Both the position numbers and the translations under genes were made by a program. Positions 47,947-63,991 of a stretch of DNA of 64,000 bases are shown here, piece by piece (within the stretch, counting starts at the first letter, position 1; every line of letters begins with the position of its first letter). Origin of the DNA: a virus; the IMG/VR virus record IMGVR_UViG_3300025141_013434, positions 62,001-126,000 of that record; one strand, 5' to 3'. The notes under the pieces were generated by a model that was not told the origin of the DNA, made no database searches, and was given only the letters and a program-made list of their open reading frames with translations.

Positions 47947-49739
47947 TACTTAATAGTACCTACAATGTCTAAGTTTGGATATTTAAGCTCAAATATATGG
48001 GTCTGAGGAGGGGTTATTACTCTTCCGTCTGCTGAAGTATTTTTAGCAATATCGAAAACTACTTGAGAATATGCTCCTGCAACCTTATTGATTATTCTAA
48101 CTTCCACGACATCTACCACTTCGCGGACATCTTTCAGGGCTTTGAATATGTCTGTTATTATTATTGGTTCTCCGATCTCTTTTGTCATTTTAAGTAAACT
48201 TCGTATGGCTAAGTTTGAGGCCCTAAGGGCGGCATGCCTATTTACGCCAGATTCAATAACAATGTCATATTCTATTCCAAAATTTATAATATGCGCATCA
48301 AGTATATCAACTGTATCGTTTATCATTCTATAATGATTTAGCCAAGTCTTTAAATTATTTTTAATTGTTATGTTTGTTCTAACAAGATGATTGTCTTGAT
48401 TTTCAGATATCACATACAAATTCAAATTCCTGTTAAAGGCATCATCGTCTCTTTTCACACAACATCTCTTAACTGCGCCAAACTGCGCAGGCATAGTATA
48501 TGTTGCGGCAACATAATCCTCTCTAGTAACTGCTCTATTTTGTGCTGCGAAGGCGTCTATTGCTCTTATTTTTAATTCTTCTACGGTTGGCAGACTTATA
48601 TCTCCCAATATTGGCTCGCCGTTTGTAACCTCTAATGAATTAGCTACAAAATCCCTTGTGGCCTCGGTTAAAGACGTAATATTATTAAATTCCACGTTTG
48701 CCTGAACAACACTATTTATAGAGTTTGCTGCTACATTTGTATTTTCTTCTGTATTTGTCCTATAAATTATTTTCAAAACAGTGTTTGACGGGCCGACTCC
48801 AAACTTATCAGTGGAAGTCAACTTTACAGGGTCGAAAGAAGTATCTGAAATGAAATCTCTGCCCAATCTTCTCAAAACCACATTAGATGGATCAGCTATC
48901 GATCCGCTCATTATTTCGTTTTCTGAGCCGTAGCCAAATTGTAAAATTGTTTCATCGTCCAGGTGCTCAACAGTATACCTTCTCGGTACCGCAAAGGGCT
49001 TCATTACGCTGGGTACTCCATCTTTTTCGGCCTTTCTGTTTACGACTGACTTAAAAATAATGTTTTGAGAAAGATGATCTACCTCGTAATACTCGTGCCC
49101 TTCTGCGTCGACAACAGATAAAATTTCCGAAATTGATTCTCCCGGTAAGGAGATCGATCTAAACTTTTTAAAATCTCCCACTGTGACTCTTTCGACTTCG
49201 TTTCTTCCTGAGACAACTCGGCCTTCTGCTTTTATTGCAAAATATGTTGGTGCACCTGTAGATTCATTAACTCTTGCTATTACAAGCTCATTTGTTGTGT
49301 CTGCAAAATTAACATTTTCTATTAGTGTAAATGGCGCATCGTTAATTGTTGAAAGTCGCGTGCCACTCCTCAGAACAGGGGCGTATCTCATGTCTGGTGC
49401 TCCTGTGTTTGAAACCGCGGGCACCAACATAAAAAATTGACACAACCCATGAGAAGAGGGGTTCTTATTAAACTTTAGGCCCTGGGCCCTTGAAAGTTTT
49501 AAAACATTTTTATACTCTGCAGCTGTTTCCAAGAATGACTCGTTTGCTTGATAATCCAGATAAAAAGATAAAACGTCGCCGACGTAGGCTACCGTATCTA
49601 TCATCAAGGATCCAAACGAAGCCTCATTAAAGTCTTTGTACGTATTTGGGTAGTATCTTTTCGCATGTCGTACCAGAGAGTCCCGGATTGACGAAAAGTC
49701 TCTATTGGTATATTTTATTGGGATTATCTTTTTAGCCAT
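47946..49739 (-). CDS. 6: Baseplate wedge protein (T4 gp6-like)
   Basis: This 597-residue protein forms the dimeric ring that joins baseplate wedges. Family features are the N-terminal KYTNRDFSSIRDSLVRHAKR and FGSLMIDTVAYVGDVLSFYL then DYQANESFLETA blocks, and a baseplate-J-like C-terminal half with RAVTREDYVAATYTMPAQFG and ADGRVITPPQTHIF. Length is close to T4 gp6 (660). The ATG at 49739 has AAGGA upstream; a TTG at 49757 without an RBS is rejected. It follows gp25 by 29 bases. Confidence 0.93.
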   Translation of the reverse strand: MAKKIIPIKYTNRDFSSIRDSLVRHAKRYYPNTYKDFNEASFGSLMIDTVAYVGDVLSFYLDYQANESFLETAAEYKNVLKLSRAQGLKFNKNPSSHGLCQFFMLVPAVSNTGAPDMRYAPVLRSGTRLSTINDAPFTLIENVNFADTTNELVIARVNESTGAPTYFAIKAEGRVVSGRNEVERVTVGDFKKFRSISLPGESISEILSVVDAEGHEYYEVDHLSQNIIFKSVVNRKAEKDGVPSVMKPFAVPRRYTVEHLDDETILQFGYGSENEIMSGSIADPSNVVLRRLGRDFISDTSFDPVKLTSTDKFGVGPSNTVLKIIYRTNTEENTNVAANSINSVVQANVEFNNITSLTEATRDFVANSLEVTNGEPILGDISLPTVEELKIRAIDAFAAQNRAVTREDYVAATYTMPAQFGAVKRCCVKRDDDAFNRNLNLYVISENQDNHLVRTNITIKNNLKTWLNHYRMINDTVDILDAHIINFGIEYDIVIESGVNRHAALRASNLAIRSLLKMTKEIGEPIIITDIFKALKDVREVVDVVEVRIINKVAGAYSQVVFDIAKNTSADGRVITPPQTHIFELKYPNLDIVGTIK

Positions 49740-49768
49740 TTCAGAATTCCTTAACAACTATCTTATTA

Positions 49769-50167
49769 TTAATTAGTGCTTTGATCAGTACTTAATGTAA
49801 GAATATTTACATCATCCATGCTTTCTATGGAATAAACTATTTTTATAGATAAAAAATTTGATGTTGATTGGAATCTGTCATCGTCTGGGTCACTCATTAT
49901 AATCTCATGGATGTCCACAAAGGGAAGATATTTTGCAGTTTGCGAGCGTATTCTCATCCTTACAGAATCATAAGTCGGCGGAGTTGCATTTTGAAACAAA
50001 TACTTATATAGCCCCACTCCGAATTCTGGATCCATCATTCTTTCTCCGGGGACCGTCAAAATAAGATTCTTCAAGTTTTGCTGAACTGCTTCTGGTATGC
50101 TTTTTGTAGAACCATACCCGCCCTCTTCAGACATTGCCAGTGGCAATTTTGGTGATATTTTAGGCAT
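49769..50167 (-). CDS. 25: Baseplate wedge protein (T4 gp25-like)
   Basis: This 132-residue protein has the GPW/gp25 signature: SIPEAVQQNLKNLILTVPGE then RMMDPEFGVGLYKYLF at about residues 22-60, and a C-terminal beta part with FLSIKIVYSI. Length equals T4 gp25 (132). It is a lysozyme-like-fold protein of the inner baseplate that initiates sheath assembly. It sits next to gp6, the usual partner in wedge assembly. Confidence 0.95.
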   Translation of the reverse strand: MPKISPKLPLAMSEEGGYGSTKSIPEAVQQNLKNLILTVPGERMMDPEFGVGLYKYLFQNATPPTYDSVRMRIRSQTAKYLPFVDIHEIIMSDPDDDRFQSTSNFLSIKIVYSIESMDDVNILTLSTDQSTN

Positions 50168-50170
50168 CTA

Positions 50171-53100
50171 TCATTCCTCCTCTTCAGTCACAATATCATC
50201 GACACAGAAAGGCGGTGGCTGCATTGGCCGGCCGGGTGTGTCGCACGAGATGCATTGAAACTCCTTTTGCTTCTTCCAATGTTCTTCCCCTGGAAGCTCT
50301 CTTATAGACAAGCCCCAAAGTCCTGGAAGAAAAAGGAGTTTTCCATATTTTCCTGTTTCTTCTCCGGCTCCAAGATTTTCTAAAAATTCAGTACCGAGAG
50401 CTGTATTAACTAGGTGCTGAACTGTTCCTTTTATCGGTTTTGCTGCACGCGACCACGAAGGCCCGAAAGGAAGAGCCGCCATAATAAGAGCCACCACAGA
50501 TTTGCCAATATCCCCGGCGACCCGGTTAACTGGAACATAAAGTGGCAGTGCACCGCCTGCGCCGCAACGGGTGAGGCCCTCTTTTGTCAATTTTCTGGGT
50601 CGCCCTGCATATGGGAAAGAGTTAACCACAACCCCTTTATTTGATAACGATCCCATGGTTAGGCCCCTTCTTAGCTTGCAGGGGTCTTTTTTATAGACCT
50701 TGTTCATTTCTTTGTAGGCCGGATCCAAATGATTTGCGGTATTTCTTATAGCAATTATCGGAGCCATCTTTATTGCTTTCTTTATCATGGGCCAGAAATC
50801 TTTTAGTTTCCTCTTGAGTTCTTCCATTGGGCCCTCAGAGCCTTGAGACGCCATGGCAGCACTAAACATATCACCATCGAGGGAAAGGTGACTGTCGTCG
50901 AGAGTCGGAGGGGTAATCATCGCCCTTAAGATCATGTTTGCTGCAGCTCGGGTACCATCAAACAATTCTGCTAAATCTTCATTTCTGTCTAGGATTGTTA
51001 TGTGATTTATTAAAAATAATGAAACATACCTATCTAGAGGAAAAACGAAGTCAAAAAGATACCTTATGTCTTCCGATGGCTCTGAAGTTAGCCTCCACCG
51101 TACCTCATTGATCGACTCATCGCGGATAAGGGACCGTGGGTCGGTGTCTTTTTCCATCCCAAAATGCTCCTTCAGGAGGGCTTCTTTATAATTCTGCATC
51201 AATCCTTGGATTTCACCTAAGAAAATCGTATTGAAGACGCGCGTCTCGACCTCACCTTCTGTATCGAACGCGTTCTTATAGTTGAGCAGGAACTTGCCCA
51301 AACAATCTATCGATTTCTCGAAGTTGTAAATAGGAGTCGGTGTCATGTCGCCGCGGCCTTCTGGCGGCCAAACGCCGGCTTGACTTATACCCCTTTTGTC
51401 TTCATGGGAGAATTGATCCATCTCTGGCTGCAGATTAATATGGACATTGGAAGGGATTGTACCCCCGTCTTTCACGCGCATAGGGAAAACAGTATAAGTT
51501 CCCCAAGGGTCTCCTCTGTGAGCGCTTGGATCTCCTTCTTGGCCCGCACCGCCCGCACCGCCAGCAGCTTCGGCACCACCGGCACCGGTACGTTGACCCA
51601 TGGTGGATGTGTCGATATCTTTAACGTGCATCGCCCCAAAAACGCCCGAAGACATGTCAACACCTTGAACGATGCTGCCTTCATCTGCCAGTCCGGACGG
51701 GGTACCAACACCCCTGCGTGGAAGTAGAGGAAATATATTTGGGTGGTTTGGCTCACGATTATAAAGATTTTCTTGCTTTTCAATGGGATATTCACCGCGA
51801 AGAAGTTCATTAAATCGGTCGAGCCTTTGCTGTGGTGTCATCTCTTCATGGATTATTCCCACCGCCTCAGGGTGAGTGCCGGCATGGATGATGGTATTCT
51901 CAACGTCGGCGGCGTGGCCATGTTCTTGCCAATGTTTTTCTTGTGCCGCAACCAGAGCTTCCATTTCCCCTTGACGCCTATAGAACCAGTTATGAGTTTC
52001 AAATCCAGCCGTTGGACTACCAAGAAAGGCGCGAGTAGTTGTGATAAACTCATTTGCACCCTTGTTCCATTGTTTATGCACCGTGAAGTCGCGACTTCGT
52101 TCATTCGAGGTATCGCCCTGGGTGAACATCTGGTGATTATTGCTTGCAAGCGAAGGTTGCGAAAACCGGATTTGGTTTTGTCGCCCCTGTTGGAGTCCCT
52201 GGTCTATTTTAAGGCCGTCGTCGTATTGTCCAACAATTTGGTTAAACGACATATCCCTTCCAATAAGAGCCCGAGGTTGGATCGGTCGAGAATCTGATTT
52301 CCATCCCGCGGGTCTGACTGCCTGTCGCGATTCGTCGTATTCGTCTTCGTTCTGGTACCAAACACGACGATTATGCCTAATTGAACGCCGAATCGATTCA
52401 TTTGCCGGCGGTATATACATTAATCTAACTCCGGCAGTCAGGGCCCCGGGCTCACTTATAAGATATTTTGCCAAAGTCTCGTATTCATCAGCCTTGGCTT
52501 CGGGGAAAATTTCCCCATCTAGTTCAGATCCTCCGACAAGAGTGGGGGAACCATGTTCCGCAAAATAATTTAACAAGCCATTTAATTCATGCTCATTGAA
52601 TGGTCCGAAATATGCATTCAGCGGTATCAGATTTCTTTCGCTCGCGCCTCGCCGATGTCGATGGTCACCCACGGGTACTTCTCGGCGACCATGGCCGCCT
52701 TCATGTACATCTTCATAGTTACGAAGCCAATCACTATCCGCCATCAAGCCTACCAAGAAAGTCTTACTGAATCTGAAATATTCCTCTAAATAGAAACAGC
52801 CATGAGTAAGTTTCATTTGACTTACCGAACCGGCCGTGATTTGCTGGTTGCCTGCAGCATCATATGAAAACTTATGATTATTGAAAAACTTTCTTCCTAT
52901 GTTTATATATCCTCGACGGATAGGGTTTTGTATTTGTTTGTAACCCTCTATTTTATCACTGCCAAGAGCTAGCTCTTCAAAGAACTTCTCTTTGTAAGAT
53001 TTATATTTGGGCATAAAAAGCTTGTTTGAAACGCTTGTAATTGTCTTCTTCGCATTTTTCATAACTCTCGCTATCAACTTATCCAAAGCAATATTGAAGT

Positions 53101-56100
53101 CATCCTCGTTTGTTATTTTTTTAATTCTATCTACGATCCTTTGGCTATCTTCTTGCTCTTCCTCTCCAAAGACCTCTTCTAATATTTTTGACTCTAGATA
53201 GTCTTTCATATAAGAAGATATTATTCTTGTTTGCATAATATCTTCTCCGTCAAATTCAGAAAAGAGGAATATCCCCTTCATTACAAATTCCAAGGCAAAA
53301 GACATTATATATATGAATATCATCTGATCTGCAATGGCGTTCTCAAGAGGGCCGGGTTCTCTGAAGTCTCTCGTTACAGGGTCATTTTCTGGTTCGCACA
53401 ATGATTCATTATAGGCCTTCATTATATCTTTCTTAAGTTGTTCGAAATCTAAAGCAATATCATTCTTTTTGATGCAGGGCTTTTCCGCTGTGGCTGGAAC
53501 GATTGCTGAGGGGCTCTGCTCTTCCTCTGGGACATCAGGATCCCCTTCATTTCCCATTGGGCCTTGGCATGGTTCCTCGTCACACTCAACAAAGGCTGCA
53601 ACCAGTTTTGTATTTAATGCCTCTAGTTGTGCCGGATCGAAAAACTTAGACTCGGATATACTCTCGCCGATGGCCTCAAGAAATGCCGTTGCTTGTGCTC
53701 GATAAAACCCTTGATAATTGTTATCTGGCCATCCGGCCAAGTTATTGAGGCTTTGGTGGGTATTCAGAAACTCAAGGCTCTGGTTTATCCACTTATCCTG
53801 AAGGTTTCTGGTCTCAGCGGTGCGCGGGTCGGTGATTTGTTCAACGTCTGAGTTAAAAAATGGAAAACGACTGTTAATCTGATGTCGCATAGGGTCATGA
53901 CCAAAAGCATACTCCGACGATGTAAAGGCTGCCTCTCGGGCAGCGCGAATGAAAGGTAAATTATCTCGGTGGGCTTCGAGTTCACGTATCCAAGCATTCA
54001 CAAACAAATCAGCAAACATTGGTGGACGAAGCGATCGTGGCGAGTCGGGGCCGGGGCTGCCCATGGCCTTCTCATTGGCCAAGTTAAGTCTTCTCGCCTT
54101 AAATTCTGGCGGAATTATAAAATTTGCTGTCCTTACCCTGTAAACCATTTGTTCCTCTCTATCTTCCGGTCTCAGGGTCCTGTCGATGGTGTGACTTATT
54201 ATATTAAAACAATCTTTAATATCGTGGTCGTGACCTCCAATCGGCAACTCTTGATAGGCTATATCATCATGTGTGATATCATTCAACTGTGCAATCGATG
54301 TATTTTTATTGGTACCAAGAACAACCAACTCATGGCTATCATCCATAAACCCTTCTCTTTTGGGTAAATTATTTATAAAATTTTCCATTTGCCCAGCAAC
54401 AGGCAATGGGTAGGTGCCGTTCCAGAGGCCAGGAACATTTTTATAAGAATATCCAAAAGCATAGTTGCTCTTCATCAAACTCTTCAATAGTGGTATAACT
54501 TTTGTTTTTCTGACCGCATTGGCAGGTAAAAATCTCGAAGCGAGGCGTTCTTGAAATAATTTTCCATCCTCTATTGTGGATCGATATGCTGTCACATGTT
54601 TTTTAATGTTGTCTATACTTTTCCATCGCTTTTTCTCGTCTGATGCTGTGCTCGGATGAAAAACCAAAATTGGATACCCCGCCCTTCTATGTTCTTCTGG
54701 GGTTGCAAGAATCTGTATTTTCTCATTTTCGTCTATCCAAAGATACGGTTTATAGATGTTCCCCTTCTCACCTTCGGATGCGATCCACTGGCTCTCTGTT
54801 GATGCTCGCCTTGGGTCTCTAAATGTAGGGTCTTCGCCCCTAGTCTGAAGATCTTGCATCTGTTTCATCAGATTCATATGAATGTGAAAATCTATCACAT
54901 CCATATCGTCCTCTCCCGGGAGATCCGCAGTCTGTTCGAAGAACGCTGGCACGTACGATGTCAAGTCCATCTTATAAGACATCTCCAGTGCGTTCAAGGC
55001 CCCCTTCACCGCTACGGTATTGGCCTTCTGTGAATGCTCGTTGTCATAAGGTCCCGGCAGACCGCCCTGGTCCGGACACCCGACAGGCGGGAGAGAATCT
55101 TGTAGCGGATCTTTTGCGAAGAGATCCTTAATTGCATCCCTCTTTTTTGCAGCATCAGCCATGGCTGCTTTAATCTCCTCTGGAGATGCTCCAAGATCCT
55201 TTAATCTTTGTCTTAGAGATGGAATTTCTTTTTCTGGACAGACCTCATCCGAAATTACAACGTTCGAAAGTCTGGCTATCTTTCCGCACACCGAGGGATC
55301 AATCAAGTCTCCCATACAAGAGAAAAACATTTCTATCTGACTTTCTGTTCCGATGTAATCCTTAAGCGTGGGCTTTGTTTTGTTAATTATCTCTTTAATA
55401 ATTCCGATAACTTCTGGAGGTGCGTTGCCACCTAATAGAGCACAAAGTTCCGCAGGTGTGAGAACCAGAGATACTTCATCAAACAAGTTTGCTAATTCCG
55501 AATAGTGCTCAACGGGGATACCCATCTTTTCCAAGCAATCAACCCCTTTGTCAATACACTCAGCTCTTGAGCTTGCTTCTGGCCCGAGGAGTTCACACAA
55601 CTCTTTATCACCAACATCCAAAAGATCTTTACAGCCAGGAAATCCCGGGATGGACAAAAGATCTTTTAGAAGATCTAGAATCGCCCTCGCAATACCGCAC
55701 AAAATGCCCAATATTATACTAATAATCATTAAAAGTAGCATTTCCAGTAGAAACCCCAAGGGATCCCATGATGGAAGTTTCGGCAACATAGGAAGTTGAA
55801 AATCGAAATCCCAATCAAACTCCAATGGCCACGGAATATCAGGAATACAGCCGGCGAAATTACAAAAAAGAGAAGTAAAATCAAAAATGTCCAAGAACTC
55901 TGCAAAAAGACCCTCTAAGGTGCATGCCGCTCCAGCTGGCAATTTATCCGTAATAGACGCAGGATTCATTGCTTGTTCTGCTGTTATTGATGCTTTCCAT
56001 GCCCCTCCTGAAGCAATAGCTAAATCTTCTTCTAGTTTTTTAGCAGCTGTTTTTAGTTCGTTAGAAAACGGAGGAAACGTACTCTTGAATTCATTCAACA

Positions 56101-58015
56101 AGAAAACAGTCTTAAGTGCCGGTATCCTGTGTGTGAATTTTTTAAAAAACTTCGTTCCTGGCATTGGCTTTGTTGTAGAACAAAGATTACTGTTTCTTGA
56201 TATCTTATACATTTCTTCAATATTATAAAGATATCCCATCGTCCGTGGATTGTTCCATGGCCTCTCATTAGTCATCAACCAATCAATTCCAGAGGTAAAT
56301 TCTATTTCTTCTTTGTTCTTCTTTACAATATGTACGGACAACACCTTAAGACCAGCCGTCACGAGCTGCATCGGAGGCTTCTGGGCCCAGGGCTGGAGAT
56401 TTGCTTTATGATCTCCTATTTCAAATTTTGTAGCCAAGCCCTTTATCGAGCCGAAAAGCGGCCTAACTCTTTCGAGCCTCTTTACTTCATCGAAACAGAA
56501 GCGAATCTTGTCGCCGGGCTGGGGAGTATAATCGTTTGTTCTTATCAGTTCCTTTGTGGCCTCTATGACTCTCTTTAATTCTCTCGACTCGCTAGGAACT
56601 CTCAGACCGGGCTGGAACCGGCCGCCGACCAGACGCCATGGTTGCATTTGGATTTCATAGTTGTTCATTCTTGTTACGACTGTCTGAATTAACCCTTCAC
56701 CGCGGAAGCTACCATGCTCATCTCTGATTTCGCCGGCCAGGAGCGCATCTATGTTATACTCTCGACACGCTGGAAAGCTTTCGTCTGAAACGTCTTTTGC
56801 GTGCTTTTCTGCTCTGGCTAATAATTCGTCTCTCAGGGCTGCTCGAATTCCATCTTTGTCTAAGCCATCAGATTCAGAATTTCTCGCCATTCGAGCTATA
56901 CATTTTTCAACTATTTCAGAAGTCGCCTTGTCTATCTCATCTCTTGAGCTTTCCAACCAATTTGACGCAGCATCTGCAGCCAGTTGCTGAACTTCGGCTT
57001 TAGCTTCCTGAAGAGCATCAAGATCCTCTGGACTAGGAAGTTCATGAAGCGTCCCTTTTGCTGGAATCGGATCAAACAAGTGTCTATTTATTGCAACTGA
57101 AAATTTAAAAGTAGAGCCGGGACGTTCCCCGGGGCTGTGTATTTTTTTGATGGCAGCGAAAATAGGCTTGGCCCTTTCTCTCAAATCCTGACCGTATAGT
57201 ATATCCACAGTAGGTGCGCTGCCAGCCAGAGCAGCGGTCGGAACAGGTGCAATAGTAAGCTGTAAATCTTCATTTCTTAAAGAAGTTGGAAAATTTTGAT
57301 AATCCATTATCTCGTTCCAGGTACCCTTGTTGGGATCTGGCTTCCACACTGGAGATTTGCCATAAAATTTAAAGGCTTTAACAACTGCTGATCTAAGAGC
57401 CAACTCACTTGTAGATTCTACAAAATTCCTATAACTGGGATCATCCCCTATGTCTGCTCGGGTTTTTCCAGAAAGCCACGTAACATATATAAATTTGCCG
57501 TCTCTGGTTGGCGGGCGATCAGTATCTTCCGGGACTCCAAACTCATTCCAATAATCTTTAGAATCCAAGTCTGAACCCTTTATAAGCTCAGATTTTGTAT
57601 CTAAATATTCCAGAACCCTTTGGGCGGATTCTTGTATTTTTTTGAGACCGGTGTTATCGAACGTTGCGCCGGGGACCTGCATCATTGACATAAAGGTTGC
57701 GGGACGAACTACACCAAATTCCGAGAACCAACCGCGGTCGGCGGAAGATGAGTTGTCTTCATCAATGATAAGGCCTGCGAATTCGCTTATTTCTGTTTTG
57801 TGCTCTAACTGCCATTTTCTAAGTGCGTCTTTGGTAGCATCATCAAAGACATCACTCTCAAACATGCCAACTCCCAGAAAATCACGTATTACTAGAACTT
57901 GAACTCCCTTGTCGCCCTTTTTCAGCGGGAGTTCAAAAGTTATAGCCCTTTCATCGGTCCCCGGCAGCCCGGTGACAACAAATTTAGATGCCTTTAAAAT
58001 TTCACTGTTACTCAT
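50171..58015 (-). CDS. Giant 2614-residue baseplate-region protein with peptidoglycan-binding N-terminus
   Basis: Residues 30-110 form a PG_binding_1-like domain (KKGDKGVQVLVIRDFLGVG followed by FDDATKDALRKWQL). Much of the rest is mixed and unrecognised. Three hydrophobic stretches stand out: about 750-785 (FLLEMLLLMIISIILGILCG), about 1561-1582 (QMIFIYIMSFALEFVMKGIF) and one near residue 2500 (VVALIMAALPFG). The region around 690-830 is Cys-rich, and the C-terminus has CISC. It lies between the spike candidates and gp25. Cell-wall binding fits the domain; a role near the tail tip that contacts the cell envelope is inferred. Confidence 0.75.
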   Translation of the reverse strand: MSNSEILKASKFVVTGLPGTDERAITFELPLKKGDKGVQVLVIRDFLGVGMFESDVFDDATKDALRKWQLEHKTEISEFAGLIIDEDNSSSADRGWFSEFGVVRPATFMSMMQVPGATFDNTGLKKIQESAQRVLEYLDTKSELIKGSDLDSKDYWNEFGVPEDTDRPPTRDGKFIYVTWLSGKTRADIGDDPSYRNFVESTSELALRSAVVKAFKFYGKSPVWKPDPNKGTWNEIMDYQNFPTSLRNEDLQLTIAPVPTAALAGSAPTVDILYGQDLRERAKPIFAAIKKIHSPGERPGSTFKFSVAINRHLFDPIPAKGTLHELPSPEDLDALQEAKAEVQQLAADAASNWLESSRDEIDKATSEIVEKCIARMARNSESDGLDKDGIRAALRDELLARAEKHAKDVSDESFPACREYNIDALLAGEIRDEHGSFRGEGLIQTVVTRMNNYEIQMQPWRLVGGRFQPGLRVPSESRELKRVIEATKELIRTNDYTPQPGDKIRFCFDEVKRLERVRPLFGSIKGLATKFEIGDHKANLQPWAQKPPMQLVTAGLKVLSVHIVKKNKEEIEFTSGIDWLMTNERPWNNPRTMGYLYNIEEMYKISRNSNLCSTTKPMPGTKFFKKFTHRIPALKTVFLLNEFKSTFPPFSNELKTAAKKLEEDLAIASGGAWKASITAEQAMNPASITDKLPAGAACTLEGLFAEFLDIFDFTSLFCNFAGCIPDIPWPLEFDWDFDFQLPMLPKLPSWDPLGFLLEMLLLMIISIILGILCGIARAILDLLKDLLSIPGFPGCKDLLDVGDKELCELLGPEASSRAECIDKGVDCLEKMGIPVEHYSELANLFDEVSLVLTPAELCALLGGNAPPEVIGIIKEIINKTKPTLKDYIGTESQIEMFFSCMGDLIDPSVCGKIARLSNVVISDEVCPEKEIPSLRQRLKDLGASPEEIKAAMADAAKKRDAIKDLFAKDPLQDSLPPVGCPDQGGLPGPYDNEHSQKANTVAVKGALNALEMSYKMDLTSYVPAFFEQTADLPGEDDMDVIDFHIHMNLMKQMQDLQTRGEDPTFRDPRRASTESQWIASEGEKGNIYKPYLWIDENEKIQILATPEEHRRAGYPILVFHPSTASDEKKRWKSIDNIKKHVTAYRSTIEDGKLFQERLASRFLPANAVRKTKVIPLLKSLMKSNYAFGYSYKNVPGLWNGTYPLPVAGQMENFINNLPKREGFMDDSHELVVLGTNKNTSIAQLNDITHDDIAYQELPIGGHDHDIKDCFNIISHTIDRTLRPEDREEQMVYRVRTANFIIPPEFKARRLNLANEKAMGSPGPDSPRSLRPPMFADLFVNAWIRELEAHRDNLPFIRAAREAAFTSSEYAFGHDPMRHQINSRFPFFNSDVEQITDPRTAETRNLQDKWINQSLEFLNTHQSLNNLAGWPDNNYQGFYRAQATAFLEAIGESISESKFFDPAQLEALNTKLVAAFVECDEEPCQGPMGNEGDPDVPEEEQSPSAIVPATAEKPCIKKNDIALDFEQLKKDIMKAYNESLCEPENDPVTRDFREPGPLENAIADQMIFIYIMSFALEFVMKGIFLFSEFDGEDIMQTRIISSYMKDYLESKILEEVFGEEEQEDSQRIVDRIKKITNEDDFNIALDKLIARVMKNAKKTITSVSNKLFMPKYKSYKEKFFEELALGSDKIEGYKQIQNPIRRGYINIGRKFFNNHKFSYDAAGNQQITAGSVSQMKLTHGCFYLEEYFRFSKTFLVGLMADSDWLRNYEDVHEGGHGRREVPVGDHRHRRGASERNLIPLNAYFGPFNEHELNGLLNYFAEHGSPTLVGGSELDGEIFPEAKADEYETLAKYLISEPGALTAGVRLMYIPPANESIRRSIRHNRRVWYQNEDEYDESRQAVRPAGWKSDSRPIQPRALIGRDMSFNQIVGQYDDGLKIDQGLQQGRQNQIRFSQPSLASNNHQMFTQGDTSNERSRDFTVHKQWNKGANEFITTTRAFLGSPTAGFETHNWFYRRQGEMEALVAAQEKHWQEHGHAADVENTIIHAGTHPEAVGIIHEEMTPQQRLDRFNELLRGEYPIEKQENLYNREPNHPNIFPLLPRRGVGTPSGLADEGSIVQGVDMSSGVFGAMHVKDIDTSTMGQRTGAGGAEAAGGAGGAGQEGDPSAHRGDPWGTYTVFPMRVKDGGTIPSNVHINLQPEMDQFSHEDKRGISQAGVWPPEGRGDMTPTPIYNFEKSIDCLGKFLLNYKNAFDTEGEVETRVFNTIFLGEIQGLMQNYKEALLKEHFGMEKDTDPRSLIRDESINEVRWRLTSEPSEDIRYLFDFVFPLDRYVSLFLINHITILDRNEDLAELFDGTRAAANMILRAMITPPTLDDSHLSLDGDMFSAAMASQGSEGPMEELKRKLKDFWPMIKKAIKMAPIIAIRNTANHLDPAYKEMNKVYKKDPCKLRRGLTMGSLSNKGVVVNSFPYAGRPRKLTKEGLTRCGAGGALPLYVPVNRVAGDIGKSVVALIMAALPFGPSWSRAAKPIKGTVQHLVNTALGTEFLENLGAGEETGKYGKLLFLPGLWGLSIRELPGEEHWKKQKEFQCISCDTPGRPMQPPPFCVDDIVTEEEE

Positions 58016-58029
58016 ATTTTGATTTTCCG

Positions 58030-60216
58030 CTAATTAACATTATTATACCTACTTCTTATACTCATTTTACCGCCGCGTTCCAAATATCCCAGTTTAGACC
58101 TTGCGAGGTTCCACTTTTGCGCAACTCCAGAAAAAACATCTTTGCTAGCATTTTTTGTAGCAAGGGTAATATCCAATGGAATCAAATTCGGAGAAGGCCC
58201 CGAGAAAGCAGCTGGGCCGGTGTTGATATGTATGTGGGACGCCAACGCGGTATGGAGCATGATTTGATCAAGTAAGAGCGACTCAACAGTTCCCACGACC
58301 ATGTCTATAACCTCTGTGAGATCTGTAAGGCATCTTGTTAAGTTGTTTCCTAATACCATTGGCTGCAAAGCTCTTTGATTGTTGTTCGCAATAATATCCA
58401 CGCCTCTTATCTTTGTTATCGGACCACCTTGAGAATTAAATTTATCTGATCTTGTTACTAATTTAATTCCTTCATTTCCTATTACCCTTACTGCATCAGC
58501 TTTTATACCTATTCCGGAACGTGCAACACTTGACCCAACGCGGCCATCGGTCAGCTTAAAATTTGAATCTATGTCAGTTTTTTGGCTTATGTGAATTCTC
58601 GCAGCATCGCATACGTATCCATCCTTTAATGGCTTATTCGGCTTTGGCCACGAACGAACATTAAACTCGGGATCGGCATATATCTTTTGTCCGTCAGAGA
58701 CTGTAACAGAACGTGGACCTGGGTTACCTGCATGGCGACCGACAACGATATCGATGGCTCCGCACTGGGTATGGCCCTTGCCTCCATAACCGGATATTCT
58801 ATTGCCAGGGCGATCGACACCCAGAACAATAAATGAGTTGTATCTACTTTTCGGTTCAAGAAGCACTTCCGCGTCAGCTTTTGCAAACTCAGGGACAGGA
58901 TCAACGCGGTGAGTGCACCCCACTCCAGAGTTCAAATTTTTGTCTCCCTCTGATAAGTTCTTTAATGCTTCTTTTGTTGTTGAATCTGCTCCATCAGTAT
59001 TAACTGCAGCACGAGCTTGCATTGCCGGCTCGCCAGCGCCGGATGCATCTTCTTCCTCTGCAATTAGTTCTTTTTCTTCATCAGGCTCATCCCCAACTTC
59101 ATGTTCAGACTCTTCAGATAGCCTCATTCCTTCGACTTCTAGCTCCTCTGGGCATCCATTGTTTTCTAGGAGTTTTTTGAGCATTTGGGCGCGCGCGCAT
59201 GAAAACGTTTTCCCAGCCTCTCGTTCGGCTGGATCTTCATGGGAATCTTCACACAGACGCTCCCATTTCTGGATTTCTTCCCTGGTTGGGATACATTTAC
59301 GAGGAGAGCCATCTGGGCAGGGGCCACTCCAAACACTTGGGGTAAATCCTTCTCTACAGGGGCCGCCGGCGTTGCCTGCCTGGGGTGGTGATGCCGGATC
59401 AGCGTCTTCAGTGAGATTTGCTTGTCCTCCAGAATACGTCGCTCCGTAAGGGGGGCCATCGTCGGTGACAGACGGGGTAGAGCTTCTGGAATCTCCTCTT
59501 CCGAAGCCGGACAAATCAAACCGAGATCCTCGAACTGTTAATAGATTGTTTGTTAAGTCGTCCAAATTTCGATCTAGGTCTGGATTTGTACTTGGACTAT
59601 CAGGACTACGACTAGGGACAGAACTATCTCCGAATATCGCTTCAAAATTTTGTATTTGGCCCGCAGCGAGAAAACTAGCCCTTAATAACTCCTGGTACTG
59701 TTGCCATTGAACTGAGTTTTGTTCTATATCTTCTATATTGACTGGTCTGGACAAATTTCCAGTAAGAGTGACCGGATCAGACAGCGGCTTCTCTTCTAGT
59801 GCATATGGTACGTAATTAGGATCCCCGGGCAGTGGCTGACTCTCTGACCACCGAGAATTTGGAGACTCCCCTGTATTAAGGGGAGAGTCCGGAATCATGG
59901 TTGAAGGGTCCCTATCTTGTGCGTATACTGTACCTTCTTTTGCTATTTTGCCTGTTTTGTCAGTTATATAATTGGTGCTGGATATGACTGTACCGTCTGA
60001 GTCTATGCCTTCCAAGGTATACTCTTCATGGTCAGGGTCCGTTAAATCGAAACCGTACTCTTTCCAGAGAAATTCAAATGCCTTATCTAAAACAGATTTA
60101 CTTGGAGTTTCGTCAAAAATCTTTTCTCTTTCTAGATTGCCGAAATCTGCATTTATTACCAAAACTTTTAGCTTTTGGTTTTTGAAATTTTTTATATGAA
60201 AAGTTTTTCTACTCAT
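58030..60216 (-). CDS. Baseplate spike or hub candidate, beta-rich C-terminus
   Basis: This 728-residue protein has a helical N-terminal head (residues 1-90), a long Pro/Ser/Asp-rich linker with a Cys-containing patch (PCREGFTPSVWSGPCPDGSP) at about 270-330, and a C-terminal region with RSGIGIKADAVRVIGNEGIK then LVTRSD at about residues 570-600, typical of the intertwined beta-helix needle parts of phage spikes. It is upstream of the giant protein and downstream of the two tail peptidases. Central spike or its adaptor is the preferred reading, at moderate confidence. Confidence 0.7.
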   Translation of the reverse strand: MSRKTFHIKNFKNQKLKVLVINADFGNLEREKIFDETPSKSVLDKAFEFLWKEYGFDLTDPDHEEYTLEGIDSDGTVISSTNYITDKTGKIAKEGTVYAQDRDPSTMIPDSPLNTGESPNSRWSESQPLPGDPNYVPYALEEKPLSDPVTLTGNLSRPVNIEDIEQNSVQWQQYQELLRASFLAAGQIQNFEAIFGDSSVPSRSPDSPSTNPDLDRNLDDLTNNLLTVRGSRFDLSGFGRGDSRSSTPSVTDDGPPYGATYSGGQANLTEDADPASPPQAGNAGGPCREGFTPSVWSGPCPDGSPRKCIPTREEIQKWERLCEDSHEDPAEREAGKTFSCARAQMLKKLLENNGCPEELEVEGMRLSEESEHEVGDEPDEEKELIAEEEDASGAGEPAMQARAAVNTDGADSTTKEALKNLSEGDKNLNSGVGCTHRVDPVPEFAKADAEVLLEPKSRYNSFIVLGVDRPGNRISGYGGKGHTQCGAIDIVVGRHAGNPGPRSVTVSDGQKIYADPEFNVRSWPKPNKPLKDGYVCDAARIHISQKTDIDSNFKLTDGRVGSSVARSGIGIKADAVRVIGNEGIKLVTRSDKFNSQGGPITKIRGVDIIANNNQRALQPMVLGNNLTRCLTDLTEVIDMVVGTVESLLLDQIMLHTALASHIHINTGPAAFSGPSPNLIPLDITLATKNASKDVFSGVAQKWNLARSKLGYLERGGKMSIRSRYNNVN

Positions 60217-60227
60217 ATCAATATCAC

Positions 60228-61694
60228 TTAAGCCAGCTCCGGGATATATCTCTGGGGGTCTATTCGCGAGGATTTTGCAATAGCATGCGTAGAATGCAAC
60301 TGCATATGCAAATGAGGCTTAGAATCAAATATAGCAGTATCCCCTGTTCTGCCAATAATTTCGCCTTGCTTAACTTCTTGACCTTTTTTTACATATATCA
60401 CGCTCATGTGCCCATAATAAGATCCCCATTTTTTACCATTATCGTCCATGTGTGCGATTCGTACCGATGCTCCGCCGATGCCGCCAGCAGATTTATATCC
60501 CGCTACGCCGGCCTTTTTAGCATCTCGCCAACGTGAAGAGACAATATCACGTCGAAATATCTTTTTTACAAGCTTTTTAAATTGCAACCAGTCCGCAGCT
60601 GCGAGGAGTTGTTTCTTTTCGTCTGCAGTAAGGCCCTTTCCGTGGGCGCGGTCATTTCTAAAAAACTTATTCGAATTTTTGCCCTTTATTGTAAGATTTG
60701 CCCAGTCGTCATTGGCAACGGCGTTACGTAAACTCTGGAATTTTGAACCCGTCATTCTTGCCGTTGCGGACCTAATTATCCCTACTTTTCCTGGTGCGAT
60801 TGCTCGGAGCGGGGTACCAACCGGAACATTTTGATCTATGGATTTGTGACTTGTCTTTCCTCCGCCATGAGCCCGCCTACCTTGGCCGTATGTTGCATGA
60901 ACCGCAAAGAACCCCTTAATCGGCGCAATCATGGGACATCCATCAAAAGTTGGGATATGTGCCTCAAGTTGAACCGATTCAGTGCATACGGGGTCTGGTT
61001 CGGGCTGTTGTTGCCATTCATCTGGAATCTCTAGCGTCTCCGCTCTTGATGAGGCCTCTTCAAAGGGTTTCTGAGCACCAGTCGGCTTCGACGTGCTTCT
61101 GGAACTGACCTGGGTAGATGTTTCGTTAACTGGTCCAAGTAGCCAGCCCCATGATTGTAACTGCTTGTCGACAAATTCGACATACACTTGATTTCCGGCG
61201 GTGGGGGTGGCCATGCCCGGAGTAGCGTAAAACCTAGGGTATCTTATAATTCTAGTATAGTCAGTTGCAACTGATTTTGCTGGATCAGAATCCGGCAGCT
61301 CTGTGGGGTCGATTGGAACAGTCAACATTGAGGATGTACCTCCTGCAACAGGACCGTAAACAACTAATACTTCTGTCAATGTTCCTCCTGCCGCCTCTGC
61401 TTGGCTTTCCAGCACTGCTACAACGGAAGGATCTCTGATATCTTCTTTCGGTACTGTTTCATAGTGCACCACTAGACAAATCCTCTTTCCCCCTATGCCG
61501 TCATCAGCTCGGGGTTCGGAATAGTGATCCATGGTCATATTACTCATGGCTTCCAAAAGGTCTATGTTGTTGCTAGCGCCGGGACGCATTGATGAAGGCA
61601 TACCACGAGCAAATGCCGGCGAGACTTGGCCGAATGTCCCATAGTCTGGCCTTTGAAACTCCCTGAACCTGTCAAACTTGTCATCTTTAGGCAT
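60228..61694 (-). CDS. Tail-associated peptidase with M23 (LytM-like) domain
   Basis: This 488-residue protein has an N-terminal domain (residues 1-190) shared with the gene immediately upstream, including EFQRPDYGTFGQ, DIRDPSVVAVLESQAEA and VEFVDKQLQSWGW. A Ser/Thr/Pro linker follows. The C-terminal M23 zinc-peptidase has HKSIDQ (His283, Asp287), then GHMSVIY and HLHMQLH (HxH) at about residues 460-466. About 100 residues rich in Lys and Arg are inserted between the two metal motifs. The ATG at 61694 directly follows the preceding stop; the frame to 61781 overlaps it and is rejected. It is probably a cell-wall-cutting hub protein that opens peptidoglycan during DNA injection. Confidence 0.88.
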   Translation of the reverse strand: MPKDDKFDRFREFQRPDYGTFGQVSPAFARGMPSSMRPGASNNIDLLEAMSNMTMDHYSEPRADDGIGGKRICLVVHYETVPKEDIRDPSVVAVLESQAEAAGGTLTEVLVVYGPVAGGTSSMLTVPIDPTELPDSDPAKSVATDYTRIIRYPRFYATPGMATPTAGNQVYVEFVDKQLQSWGWLLGPVNETSTQVSSRSTSKPTGAQKPFEEASSRAETLEIPDEWQQQPEPDPVCTESVQLEAHIPTFDGCPMIAPIKGFFAVHATYGQGRRAHGGGKTSHKSIDQNVPVGTPLRAIAPGKVGIIRSATARMTGSKFQSLRNAVANDDWANLTIKGKNSNKFFRNDRAHGKGLTADEKKQLLAAADWLQFKKLVKKIFRRDIVSSRWRDAKKAGVAGYKSAGGIGGASVRIAHMDDNGKKWGSYYGHMSVIYVKKGQEVKQGEIIGRTGDTAIFDSKPHLHMQLHSTHAIAKSSRIDPQRYIPELA

Positions 61695-61695
61695 T

Positions 61696-62961
61696 TTATG
61701 CCACCCCGCTGATAGCAGGCTTGCTAAACCTGATATGATAATGATGATGGTGGCCAGCGACGTGAAACAGCCTTTGGTCACGTATACCCATCAGGGCTAT
61801 CAGATTGCGATCAAGAAAAATAGAATGAACTGTTCCAGATCTCAAAAGTTCTTCAGTGAATCTCTTATTTGCCTCTACATGAAAATGTTGTTGATTTGTC
61901 TCAACAGCATCAATCATAAAATGGTCTCCGAACCTCTTCGTCCAAATAAAACCAGTATCTATGTCTAGCCCGTTTTGGTGCGATTTATGGATTACGCCAC
62001 CACCGCCCTGAGCTTTACAACAAACTCCGCCGTCCTTAAGAGAAATATCGCCCATATATATGCGGCTTGTTTGATCTGGAAACTCTTTGAAGACGGTGTC
62101 CATAGCTTTTATTAGTCCGTTTATTAACACGGGGTTGGCCCATTGTCTGGCTTTTCTGGCCCTATGCCATTTGAATAAATCTGGCCTTTGGCCGTGCATA
62201 TTGACACCGTTTATTAATTGACCATCTCTGTTCCAGCGACCGGTCGATATGGTTTTATTATTGGGATCGTGTGTGAGATCCCCCACAGTTGTAGGCCTAG
62301 TGGTTGGCAGAGGGCTAGAAGGCACATCTTCATGCGCATCTCTTGCGCTTGGGGGAGTTGGAGAACCGGCCGATCTGGAACTGATTGCACCTGAACCTGC
62401 ATCCATCATGCTATGAAACCAACCCCATGATTGTAGCTGCTTGTCAACGAACTCGACCCGACAAAGATGACCGAAGAGCGGAGCTGCCTTGGAAGGAATG
62501 GCGTAAAATCTAGGATATCTTATAATTCTAGCATAGTCGTCTGCTATGGTTTTCGCAGGATCGGTATCCGGCAATTTTTTAGGATCCACGGGCACAGTCA
62601 ACATTGAAGATGTTCCGCCGGCAACAGGGCCGTAGACGACCAACACCTCTGTCAATACCTCTCCTGTCGCTTCTGCTTGGCTCTCCAGCACTGCAACAAC
62701 GGAAGGATCCCTAATATCCTCTTTTGGTATTGTTTCGAAATGAGCAACTAGACAGATCCTTTGACCCTTGATCCCATCATCTCCACGTTGTGAGGAGAAA
62801 TGATCCAGCGCCATGTTTTTTGCTGCTTGCCAAAGATCTATATTATTACTAAGGCCCGGGCGAGTAGAGTTAGGTACGCCGCGGTTAAAGGCAGACCTTA
62901 TTTGTCCAAACGTTCCATAATCTGGTCTTTGAAATTCTTTAATCTTTTCATCTATGGACAC
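61696..62961 (-). CDS. Tail-associated peptidase with MepA/M74-like domain
   Basis: This 421-residue protein starts at GTG with GAGGA nine bases upstream. Its N-terminal domain matches the gene downstream. The C-terminal domain carries the MepA/M74 motifs: IHKSHQNGLDIDTG (His and Asp of the H-x6-D metal site, near residue 326-333) and HHHHYHIRF (HxH near 404-409), with QQHFHVEANKRF between. This family cuts D-Ala-mDAP cross-links of peptidoglycan. It shares its N-terminal domain with a differently armed protein, so both may sit at the tail tip. The alternative, a free endolysin, is less likely because of the shared structural domain. Confidence 0.85.
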   Translation of the reverse strand: MSIDEKIKEFQRPDYGTFGQIRSAFNRGVPNSTRPGLSNNIDLWQAAKNMALDHFSSQRGDDGIKGQRICLVAHFETIPKEDIRDPSVVAVLESQAEATGEVLTEVLVVYGPVAGGTSSMLTVPVDPKKLPDTDPAKTIADDYARIIRYPRFYAIPSKAAPLFGHLCRVEFVDKQLQSWGWFHSMMDAGSGAISSRSAGSPTPPSARDAHEDVPSSPLPTTRPTTVGDLTHDPNNKTISTGRWNRDGQLINGVNMHGQRPDLFKWHRARKARQWANPVLINGLIKAMDTVFKEFPDQTSRIYMGDISLKDGGVCCKAQGGGGVIHKSHQNGLDIDTGFIWTKRFGDHFMIDAVETNQQHFHVEANKRFTEELLRSGTVHSIFLDRNLIALMGIRDQRLFHVAGHHHHYHIRFSKPAISGVA

Positions 62962-62966
62962 TTCTA

Positions 62967-63260
62967 TTAATCCTCGTCTTTTTTAGACTGGATGATATCA
63001 AACAATTCGTCTTTTTCGATATCTGTTATTCCTTTCTCTCCGGAGGATTGTTTCTGTATCAAGGCAGCAAGCTTTACCAACTGTTCGTTCGACCTTTGTA
63101 AAGTCTCTACATATTTTGCTGCAACCATCCCCACTTCTTTATGACGATCATCTTGAACTGTCATATACTTTATCAAAGTAACAAGGAGAGCTTTTGTAGC
63201 TGCCCTATCTTCTTTGATGTTTTGAGTTGCTTTGTTTATATAATCTGTCAGATCTTTCAT
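62967..63260 (-). CDS. Small helical protein next to the late sigma factor
   Basis: This 97-residue helical protein has a central coiled-coil-like region (VAAKYVETLQRSNEQLVKLA) and an acidic/hydrophobic C-terminus, DIEKDELFDIIQSKKDED. No family is recognised. It follows the gp55-like gene by 20 bases and has no Shine-Dalgarno in that gap. The T4 late co-activator gp33 is a small protein that binds the sliding clamp by its C-terminus; the position and DELFDII tail would fit a functional analogue, but there is no sequence match I can claim. Confidence 0.65.
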   Translation of the reverse strand: MKDLTDYINKATQNIKEDRAATKALLVTLIKYMTVQDDRHKEVGMVAAKYVETLQRSNEQLVKLAALIQKQSSGEKGITDIEKDELFDIIQSKKDED

Positions 63261-63280: not shown

Positions 63281-63991
63281 TTAAATTCTATTGATACTTT
63301 CGTAGTCGCCGCGGTCCCACTTTATCTTAAAAATTCTATATTTTTGCCGCAACTTATTCAAATTATTGACTATTTGCTTGGTGTTGAGGCCCGTTATTTC
63401 TCTCAAATATAGGTAGACCGCTTTTTTGTTAAAAATTTCTATCTCTTCTGCGTTCGTAAGAAGAATCTTTATTGCTTCAATCACTTTTCTTTCGTTGACT
63501 TTTAAGTCTGCGCCTTCCCAACGATCGATCTCTGACATTAATGACATCCAGAATTCCTTATACTCTCTCTTTTCTACATAACTCTCTTCGTTTGTCACCA
63601 GATCTTCATGAATTGCCTCTTTTACCAGATCATCATAACTAACTTCTCTTTTTGTTTGAGTCGAGTTCTTTTTTAATTTATGTATAAACCAATGTTTTGT
63701 CACAACGCTAAAATATGAGAAAGCTTTAGATCCCTTATTAGGATCGTATTTGTCCAAAATTGTTGTCAGCCAAATTTTACATTCGTCTTTTAGTGGGTCT
63801 ATGTTCGGCAGAGATGTGAATTTATAAGTGTAAGTTATTTTTTCAACCATTTCGTGAAAAGCCGGTTGTATGTAATCTACATATAATTCTGTTCTCTTTA
63901 TATTACATTCAGTATTTGTATAATCTATGATTGCGTTTTCATGAACCTTTGTAAAATAATGATTCTTATTCCGCTTCCGTCTCTTCTTCAA
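63281..63991 (-). CDS. 55: Late-transcription sigma factor (T4 gp55-like), possibly extending past the edge
   Basis: The 236-residue reading from a TTG at 63991 is a divergent sigma factor. It contains a region-2-like segment at about residues 75-110 (DKYDPNKGSKAFSYFSVVTK followed by HWFIHKLKK), which matches the core-binding and melting helix pattern of gp55, and a C-terminal helical part with LREITGLNTKQIVNNLNKLR resembling a helix-turn-helix. The frame stays open to the window edge, so the true start may lie further right. In T4, gp55 with the clamp and gp33 directs RNA polymerase to late promoters. Confidence 0.82.
   Translation of the reverse strand: MKKRRKRNKNHYFTKVHENAIIDYTNTECNIKRTELYVDYIQPAFHEMVEKITYTYKFTSLPNIDPLKDECKIWLTTILDKYDPNKGSKAFSYFSVVTKHWFIHKLKKNSTQTKREVSYDDLVKEAIHEDLVTNEESYVEKREYKEFWMSLMSEIDRWEGADLKVNERKVIEAIKILLTNAEEIEIFNKKAVYLYLREITGLNTKQIVNNLNKLRQKYRIFKIKWDRGDYESINRI

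What the first reader, a model, noticed from the sequence alone, without database searches (positions are those of the whole stretch)
60228..62961. Tandem tail proteins share one domain but carry different peptidases
Seen: two adjacent genes encode nearly the same N-terminal domain of about 190 residues (for example DIRDPSVVAVLESQAEA in both, with strong DNA similarity over that stretch) but end in different peptidoglycan hydrolases, MepA/M74-type in one and M23-type in the other. Inference: a duplication of a hub domain followed by domain swapping, giving one tail tip two cross-link cleaving activities, or alternative hub subunits for different cell walls. T4 has a single gp5 lysozyme for this job.
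Basis: partly seen in the sequence, partly recalled or inferred. Interest (0 to 1): 0.7.

Follow-up and report, generated by a model that had tools for sequence, protein, structure and literature searches.

The report
Tandem tail-tip wall-cutters on shared anchors
A marine phage carries two side-by-side genes that share one tail-tip anchor domain but end in different cell-wall-cutting enzymes, and its relatives have repeatedly built similar sets of two or three, which suggests that these phages mount several different wall-cutting tools on one needle.

Summary
Two adjacent minus-strand genes (61696-62961 and 60228-61694) share a 198-residue N-terminal domain at 69% identity. They end in an M74 (MepA-type) and an M23 peptidase, both with intact catalytic motifs. 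The duplication is old (dS about 2) and under purifying selection.

The slot lies between a gp55-like sigma gene plus a small coiled-coil gene and a conserved spike-like gene, next to giant tail, gp25 and gp6 genes. In 155 distinct related marine slots it holds one such protein in 135, two in 10 and three in 9, never four. The window's close kin have one. In all 20 arrays (38 pairs) the N-domains are homologous; C-terminal parts are homologous in only one pair. Enzymes include amidase, M15/VanY, M23, muramidase/SLT, tail lysozyme and GDSL esterase. Enzymes and anchors recombine freely (82% identical enzyme on 29% identical anchor, and the reverse). Single/array state changed at least 15 times.

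Best reading: gp5-type hub anchors with exchangeable lysin cassettes, repeatedly duplicated so that one tail tip carries complementary activities. Fold evidence for a gp5 OB domain is moderate; virion presence and stoichiometry are untested. A one-of-each heterotrimer is the most novel open possibility.

The parts
61696..62961 (-). Array member 1: anchor domain + M74 (MepA/LAS-type) peptidase, 421 aa, GTG start
62377..62961 (-). Anchor (N-terminal) domain of the M74 protein, residues 1-195; folded as model m92cefffc7341
61699..62244 (-). M74 catalytic region (about residues 240-421) with HKSHQNGLDID at residue 325 and HHHYH at residue 405
60228..61694 (-). Array member 2: anchor domain + M23 peptidase, 488 aa, ATG start one base after the M74 stop
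61095..61694 (-). Anchor (N-terminal) domain of the M23 protein, residues 1-200
60231..60932 (-). M23 catalytic region (about residues 255-488) with HKSID at residue 283 and HLH at residue 461; about 90 residues are inserted between the two halves
58030..60216 (-). Conserved spike-like neighbour (728 aa; core about residues 430-728), present downstream of the slot in 201 of 204 related loci
   Evidence: fold unresolved
62967..63260 (-). Small gene (97 aa, looks coiled-coil) that precedes the slot in nearly all relatives
63281..63991 (-). gp55-like late sigma factor gene that marks the upstream edge of the slot
50171..58015 (-). Giant tail protein (2614 aa) downstream of the spike-like gene
49769..50167 (-). 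Baseplate wedge gp25 homologue
47946..49757 (-). Baseplate wedge gp6-like protein

Best explanation
Each protein is a tail-tip lysin made of two modules. The N-terminal domain of about 195 residues, a divergent relative of the OB-fold domain of T4 gp5-type hub proteins, docks it at the baseplate hub or spike. The C-terminal enzyme cuts peptidoglycan as the tail passes through the wall. In T4 these parts and the needle form one gene (gp5, later cleaved); here the anchor-enzyme part and the putative spike are separate genes. That lets the anchor-enzyme gene be duplicated and its enzyme exchanged without touching the needle. In this phage the anchor was duplicated and the copies carry M74 and M23 endopeptidases. 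In relatives the same slot was repeatedly expanded to two or three anchors with different enzymes, so one tail tip probably carries complementary cutting activities. Shown: duplication, intact motifs, synteny, enzyme exchange, recurrence. Inferred: virion location, simultaneous assembly, enzymatic activity.
For: Paralogy, selection and motifs. Baseplate setting beside gp25, gp6 and giant tail genes. Slot conserved in 201 of 204 sigma loci. 20 arrays: N homologous in 38/38 pairs, C homologous in 1/38. Copy number in 155 distinct slots: 135 single, 10 pairs, 9 triplets, 1 none, never four. At least 15 single/array changes on the tree. Modular exchange: L151.2/L215.2 enzyme 82%, anchor 29%; L170/L171 anchors 49-50% at all three positions with no enzyme homology. 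Enzyme classes. gp5 OB and hub proteins among the best viral structure matches.
Against: The anchor model is of moderate confidence and no solved structure matches with E<0.001. Sequence profiles find no PDB relative. The window's nearest relatives keep a single gene, so two enzymes are not required. Virion presence is not tested. The spike-like neighbour's fold is unresolved.
Confidence: 0.66

Rival explanations
1. Alternative subunits: paralogues compete for the same hub position, so different virions (or homotrimers) carry different enzymes, a bet-hedging mix for different walls.
For: Anchors within an array are often each other's closest match (31 of 49 members), so they should be interchangeable; most relatives manage with one.
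Against: L170/L171 keep three position-specific anchor types (.1-.1.2-.2.3-.3 at 49-50%) although all three enzymes were replaced, and L215/L218 anchors match by position; this suggests distinct places rather than competition. Arrays combine different chemistries.
Confidence: 0.25
2. One of the two proteins is (or doubles as) the lysis endolysin rather than a virion component.
For: No other M23, Amidase_2, phage lysozyme (PF00959) or M15_4 domain is found in the phage's 145-kb record.
Against: Both keep the same anchor and lie in the baseplate cluster; a free endolysin would not need the anchor. The record may be incomplete and only four families were tried.
Confidence: 0.08
3. The extra copies are mainly recombination stock: transient duplications caught during enzyme exchange, without a joint function.
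For: Arrays are scattered on the tree, enzymes move between anchors, and one array has an enzyme-less anchor copy (L210.2).
Against: The window pair has dS about 2 with dN/dS about 0.12 and intact motifs in both enzymes, so both copies were kept by selection for long; sister phages share whole arrays (L113/L141, L205/L207, L170/L171, L215/L218).
Confidence: 0.08

Closest known systems
T4 gp5 (baseplate hub tail lysozyme and needle)
   Same: N-terminal hub-docking domain followed by a wall-cutting enzyme; encoded in the baseplate gene region of a T4-superfamily phage; structure search returns gp5 OB-fold and hub proteins.
   Different: One gene with GH24 lysozyme and a C-terminal beta-helix in T4; here two genes, peptidases instead of lysozyme, and no beta-helix in the same chain (a separate spike-like gene follows).
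Anabaena myophage A-1(L) hub gp15 (PMC10966104)
   Same: A baseplate hub carrying several wall-cutting domains, with two activities shown in vitro.
   Different: All domains are in one polypeptide; not tandem paralogues on a shared anchor.
B. thuringiensis phage 0305phi8-36 gp147 hub (PMC2147016)
   Same: gp27-type hub with transglycosylase, NLP and M23 domains that differ from those of its relative; domain exchange proposed.
   Different: A single fused gene; the anchor is of gp27 type.
Evolved VgrG spikes of type VI secretion (V. cholerae VgrG1/2/3; PMC8668125)
   Same: Spike paralogues, some with C-terminal enzymes, three in number, reported to form a heterotrimeric spike.
   Different: Bacterial secretion system; the same paper attributes the requirement in its own species to effectors rather than to heterotrimers as such.
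gp5 divergence in pelagi- and cyanomyophages (PMC7029224)
   Same: gp5 noted as far more divergent than VrlC, read as adaptation to the host wall.
   Different: No tandem arrays or anchor/enzyme exchange described in the passages read.

Membership tests
T4 gp5-type hub lysozyme | N-terminal OB-fold hub domain | tested here: inconclusive
   pLDDT 71 model; PDB top hits mostly OB-fold proteins but E>=0.18; BFVD hits include a marine M23B protein (prob 0.99), a gp5 N-terminal OB-fold protein (0.51) and a cyanophage hub lysozyme (0.44); profile link at 90.9% to other slot N-domains.
T4 gp5-type hub lysozyme | GH24 lysozyme domain | tested here: not met
   M74 and M23 peptidases instead.
T4 gp5-type hub lysozyme | C-terminal triple-stranded beta-helix in the same chain | tested here: not met
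   Both chains end after the enzyme; a spike-like protein is encoded separately, its fold unresolved.
T4 gp5-type hub lysozyme | Encoded in the baseplate gene cluster | tested here: met
   gp25, gp6-like and giant tail genes lie downstream, with conserved order in relatives.
T4 gp5-type hub lysozyme | Trimer at the tail tip, present in the virion | not testable with these tools
   Needs virion proteomics or cryo-EM.
Peptidase family M23 | Family profile above cut-off; HxxxD and HxH zinc motifs | tested here: met
   60.4 bits against cut-off 28.7; HKSID and HLH.
Peptidase family M74 (MepA) | Family profile above cut-off; HxxHQxGLDxD and HxHxH motifs | tested here: met
   33.8 bits against cut-off 25, partial profile 21-94 of 240; motifs.
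Heterotrimeric (VgrG-like) mixed spike | Paralogues assemble together in one trimer | not testable with these tools
   Only indirect: maximum of three copies and position-specific anchors.

The most novel reading that the evidence does not exclude
The array encodes a mixed tail tip: paralogous anchors occupy the three positions of one hub trimer, so a triplet phage carries three different wall-cutting enzymes on one needle (2:1 for pairs like the window's). The maximum of three copies in 155 distinct slots and the conserved position-specific anchors in L170/L171 would follow from this.
Probability: 0.3. Interest if true: 0.82.

Novelty: new variant of a known kind. Interest (0 to 1): 0.63.

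Why it matters
Tail-tip lysins are known as single enzymes, or as several domains fused in one hub protein. A conserved gene slot that is repeatedly expanded to two or three copies of one anchor, each with a different enzyme, shows how phages swap and combine wall-cutting tools without rebuilding the needle. It makes testable whether contractile tails can be hetero-oligomeric at the tip. It also gives a natural library of anchor-enzyme pairs and enzyme combinations (for example esterase, muramidase and amidase in one array).

Tried and rejected
Direct searches with the window proteins found nothing: the M74 protein and the spike-like neighbour had no match in 50,697 phage records, and neither array protein gave a relative by peptide patterns in IMG/VR. 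Relatives had to be reached through the terminase and sigma genes. PHROGs matched only the M23 part of the M23 protein and nothing in the M74 or spike-like proteins. Profile searches of the PDB with the anchor (two alignments) and the spike-like family gave no credible match. The spike-like AlphaFold model was too poor to use (pLDDT 57); its only clear viral match is an unnamed 324-aa protein, so a beta-helix needle is inferred, not shown. An assembly artefact was rejected (longest shared exact run 16 nt, dS about 2). Chance similarity was rejected (E=1e-98). Some slots with two ORFs proved to hold unrelated ORFs and were not counted.

Full report
Observation. The window is bases 62001-126000 of a 145-kb virus record in IMG/VR. 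Its terminase and gp6-like baseplate protein are related to those of T4-superfamily phages, with Microcystis phage Mel-JY01, Flavobacterium immuto phages and an uncultured phage nearest. Two adjacent minus-strand genes, 61696-62961 (421 aa) and 60228-61694 (488 aa), share 198 N-terminal residues at 69% identity, E=1e-98. After residue about 205 they are unrelated. One ends in a Peptidase_M74 domain, the other in Peptidase_M23, both above Pfam cut-offs and with their metal-binding motifs present. The M23 gene's likely start is the ATG at 61694, one base after the M74 stop. dN is 0.24 and dS about 2; differences concentrate at third codon positions (47/38/105) and the longest shared exact run is 16 nt. 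The duplication is old and both copies have been under purifying selection.

Setting. On the minus strand the order is a gp55-like late sigma gene (63281-63991), a small gene (62967-63260), the M74 gene, the M23 gene, a 728-aa protein, a 2614-aa giant protein, gp25 (49769-50167) and a gp6-like wedge protein (47946-49757). Sequence searches with the two proteins themselves found no relatives. Relatives were reached through the terminase, whose contigs held homologues in the same place, and then through the sigma gene. This gave 204 loci, of which 201 contain the same slot between the sigma gene and the spike-like gene. The C-terminal 300 residues of the 728-aa protein are conserved in this spike-like family.

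What the slot holds. After removing near-copies, 155 distinct slots hold one anchor protein (135), two (10), three (9) or none (1), and never four. The window is one more pair. Including it, there are 20 arrays and 38 within-array pairs. The N-terminal parts are homologous in all 38 (30-89% identity) and the C-terminal parts in one (L116, where both appear to contain a GDSL-like domain). Homology stops at about residue 150-230 in every case, as in the window. Pfam and PHROGs assign many different enzymes to the C-terminal parts: M23 (L127, L149, L151, L165); Amidase_2 (L092/L105, L109, L114, L165, L170, L236, L260); VanY/M15 (L115, L117, L129, L170, L236); N-acetylmuramidase with GDSL (L106); tail lysozyme (L207); SLT (L116, L209 weak); GDSL esterase-like (L113, L116, L141, L151 and others, several below cut-off); endolysin-like (L113.2). 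Notable sets are L260 (GDSL, muramidase, Amidase_2), L170 (Amidase_2, DUF2272, VanY) and L165 (M23, Amidase_2). The same pairing can be fused in one protein (L106: muramidase plus GDSL) or split over two anchors (L113: GDSL and lysozyme-like). Several C-termini have no recognised family.

Modular exchange. Nearly the same enzyme occurs on very different anchors: L151.2 and L215.2 are 82% identical in the enzyme and 29% in the anchor; L209.1 and L203.1 are 74% and 31%. Conversely, the sister triplets L170 and L171 keep positional anchors (49%, 49%, 50%) while all three enzymes differ. In L207 the three anchors resemble each other (62-66%) more than their positional counterparts in L205 (44-52%), although the enzymes of members 1 and 3 are orthologous (59%, 52-53%). 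This looks like homogenisation of anchors within an array. L215/L218 show the opposite: positional anchors 53-55%, within-array 41%. Overall, 31 of 49 array members have their closest anchor in the same array.

Recurrence. On a FastTree phylogeny of sigma plus spike-like proteins (156 rows), the single/array state changes at least 15 times. The window sits in a fully supported group of eight whose other members all have one gene. The window pair is therefore an independent event among many. FastTree support is approximate. The sampling favours relatives of three query sigma genes, all from array-bearing phages (the window, L113, L116), because the later scans returned the best 80 of about 600; frequencies are therefore not population frequencies.

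What the N-domain is. AlphaFold2 with ten homologues gives a moderate model (pLDDT 71, pTM 0.65). Its best solved-structure matches are weak but many are OB-fold proteins (ribosomal S12-type chains, IF1, an RPA OB domain), plus a phage P1 baseplate chain. In BFVD the best matches are unnamed viral proteins, a marine-virus 'Peptidase M23B' (prob 0.99), a 'Protein Gp5, N-terminal OB-fold domain' protein, and several cyanophage 'baseplate hub + tail lysozyme' proteins. The window-type anchors align collinearly with the more gp5-like anchors of other slot members (hhalign 90.9%; further group links). Together with the gene order this supports, but does not prove, a gp5-type hub anchor. The spike-like neighbour could not be modelled reliably.

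Mechanism. The most likely reading is that the anchor places each enzyme at the hub or needle, as the OB domain of T4 gp5 places its lysozyme (established knowledge of T4), so the enzymes open the wall during tail penetration. With anchor-enzyme and needle on separate genes, the anchor-enzyme unit can be duplicated and re-equipped. The window's two enzymes are both expected from their families to cut peptide cross-links or bridges; activity is inferred. Joint assembly in one virion is inferred. A mixed trimer would explain the limit of three copies and the position-specific anchors of L170/L171, but alternative subunits remain possible. A lysis role for one protein is less likely, though no other M23, Amidase_2, PF00959 or M15_4 domain was found in the record.

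Known relatives. Multi-enzyme hubs are known as fusions: A-1(L) gp15 with two demonstrated activities (PMC10966104) and 0305phi8-36 gp147 (PMC2147016). P1 gp5 appears to lack a lysozyme domain altogether (PMC9024508). VgrG spikes with different C-terminal domains are reported to form heterotrimers (PMC8668125). Divergent gp5 in marine T4-like phages has been noted (PMC7029224). No paper found here describes tandem arrays of one anchor with different enzymes, but the library is limited to open-access papers. This is a new variant of a known kind.

Noticed in passing
L210:5552-6295: Middle member of a triplet is an anchor domain with no enzyme (247 aa, about 75% identical to its neighbour's anchor).
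   Followed up: partly
L259:11081-12934: Array member whose C-terminus matches HINT/AXH/intein-like domains instead of a wall hydrolase.
   Followed up: no
L110, L112, L121, L128 hub genes: Some single-copy slots hold very large hub proteins (1000-1370 aa) that may fuse several enzymes on one anchor.
   Followed up: partly
window 34099-45972: Single 3957-aa predicted protein in the tail region of the same cluster; function not studied.
   Followed up: no
L093:4662-7385: A related phage encodes a separate 907-aa protein with M74 and peptidoglycan-binding domains, in a different gene setting and without a detected anchor domain.
   Followed up: no
L090 and L091, upstream of the sigma gene: A cluster of sugar-nucleotide, glycosyltransferase-like, sulfotransferase-like and epimerase-like genes (names judged by eye) lies just upstream of the tail slot in several relatives.
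   Followed up: no
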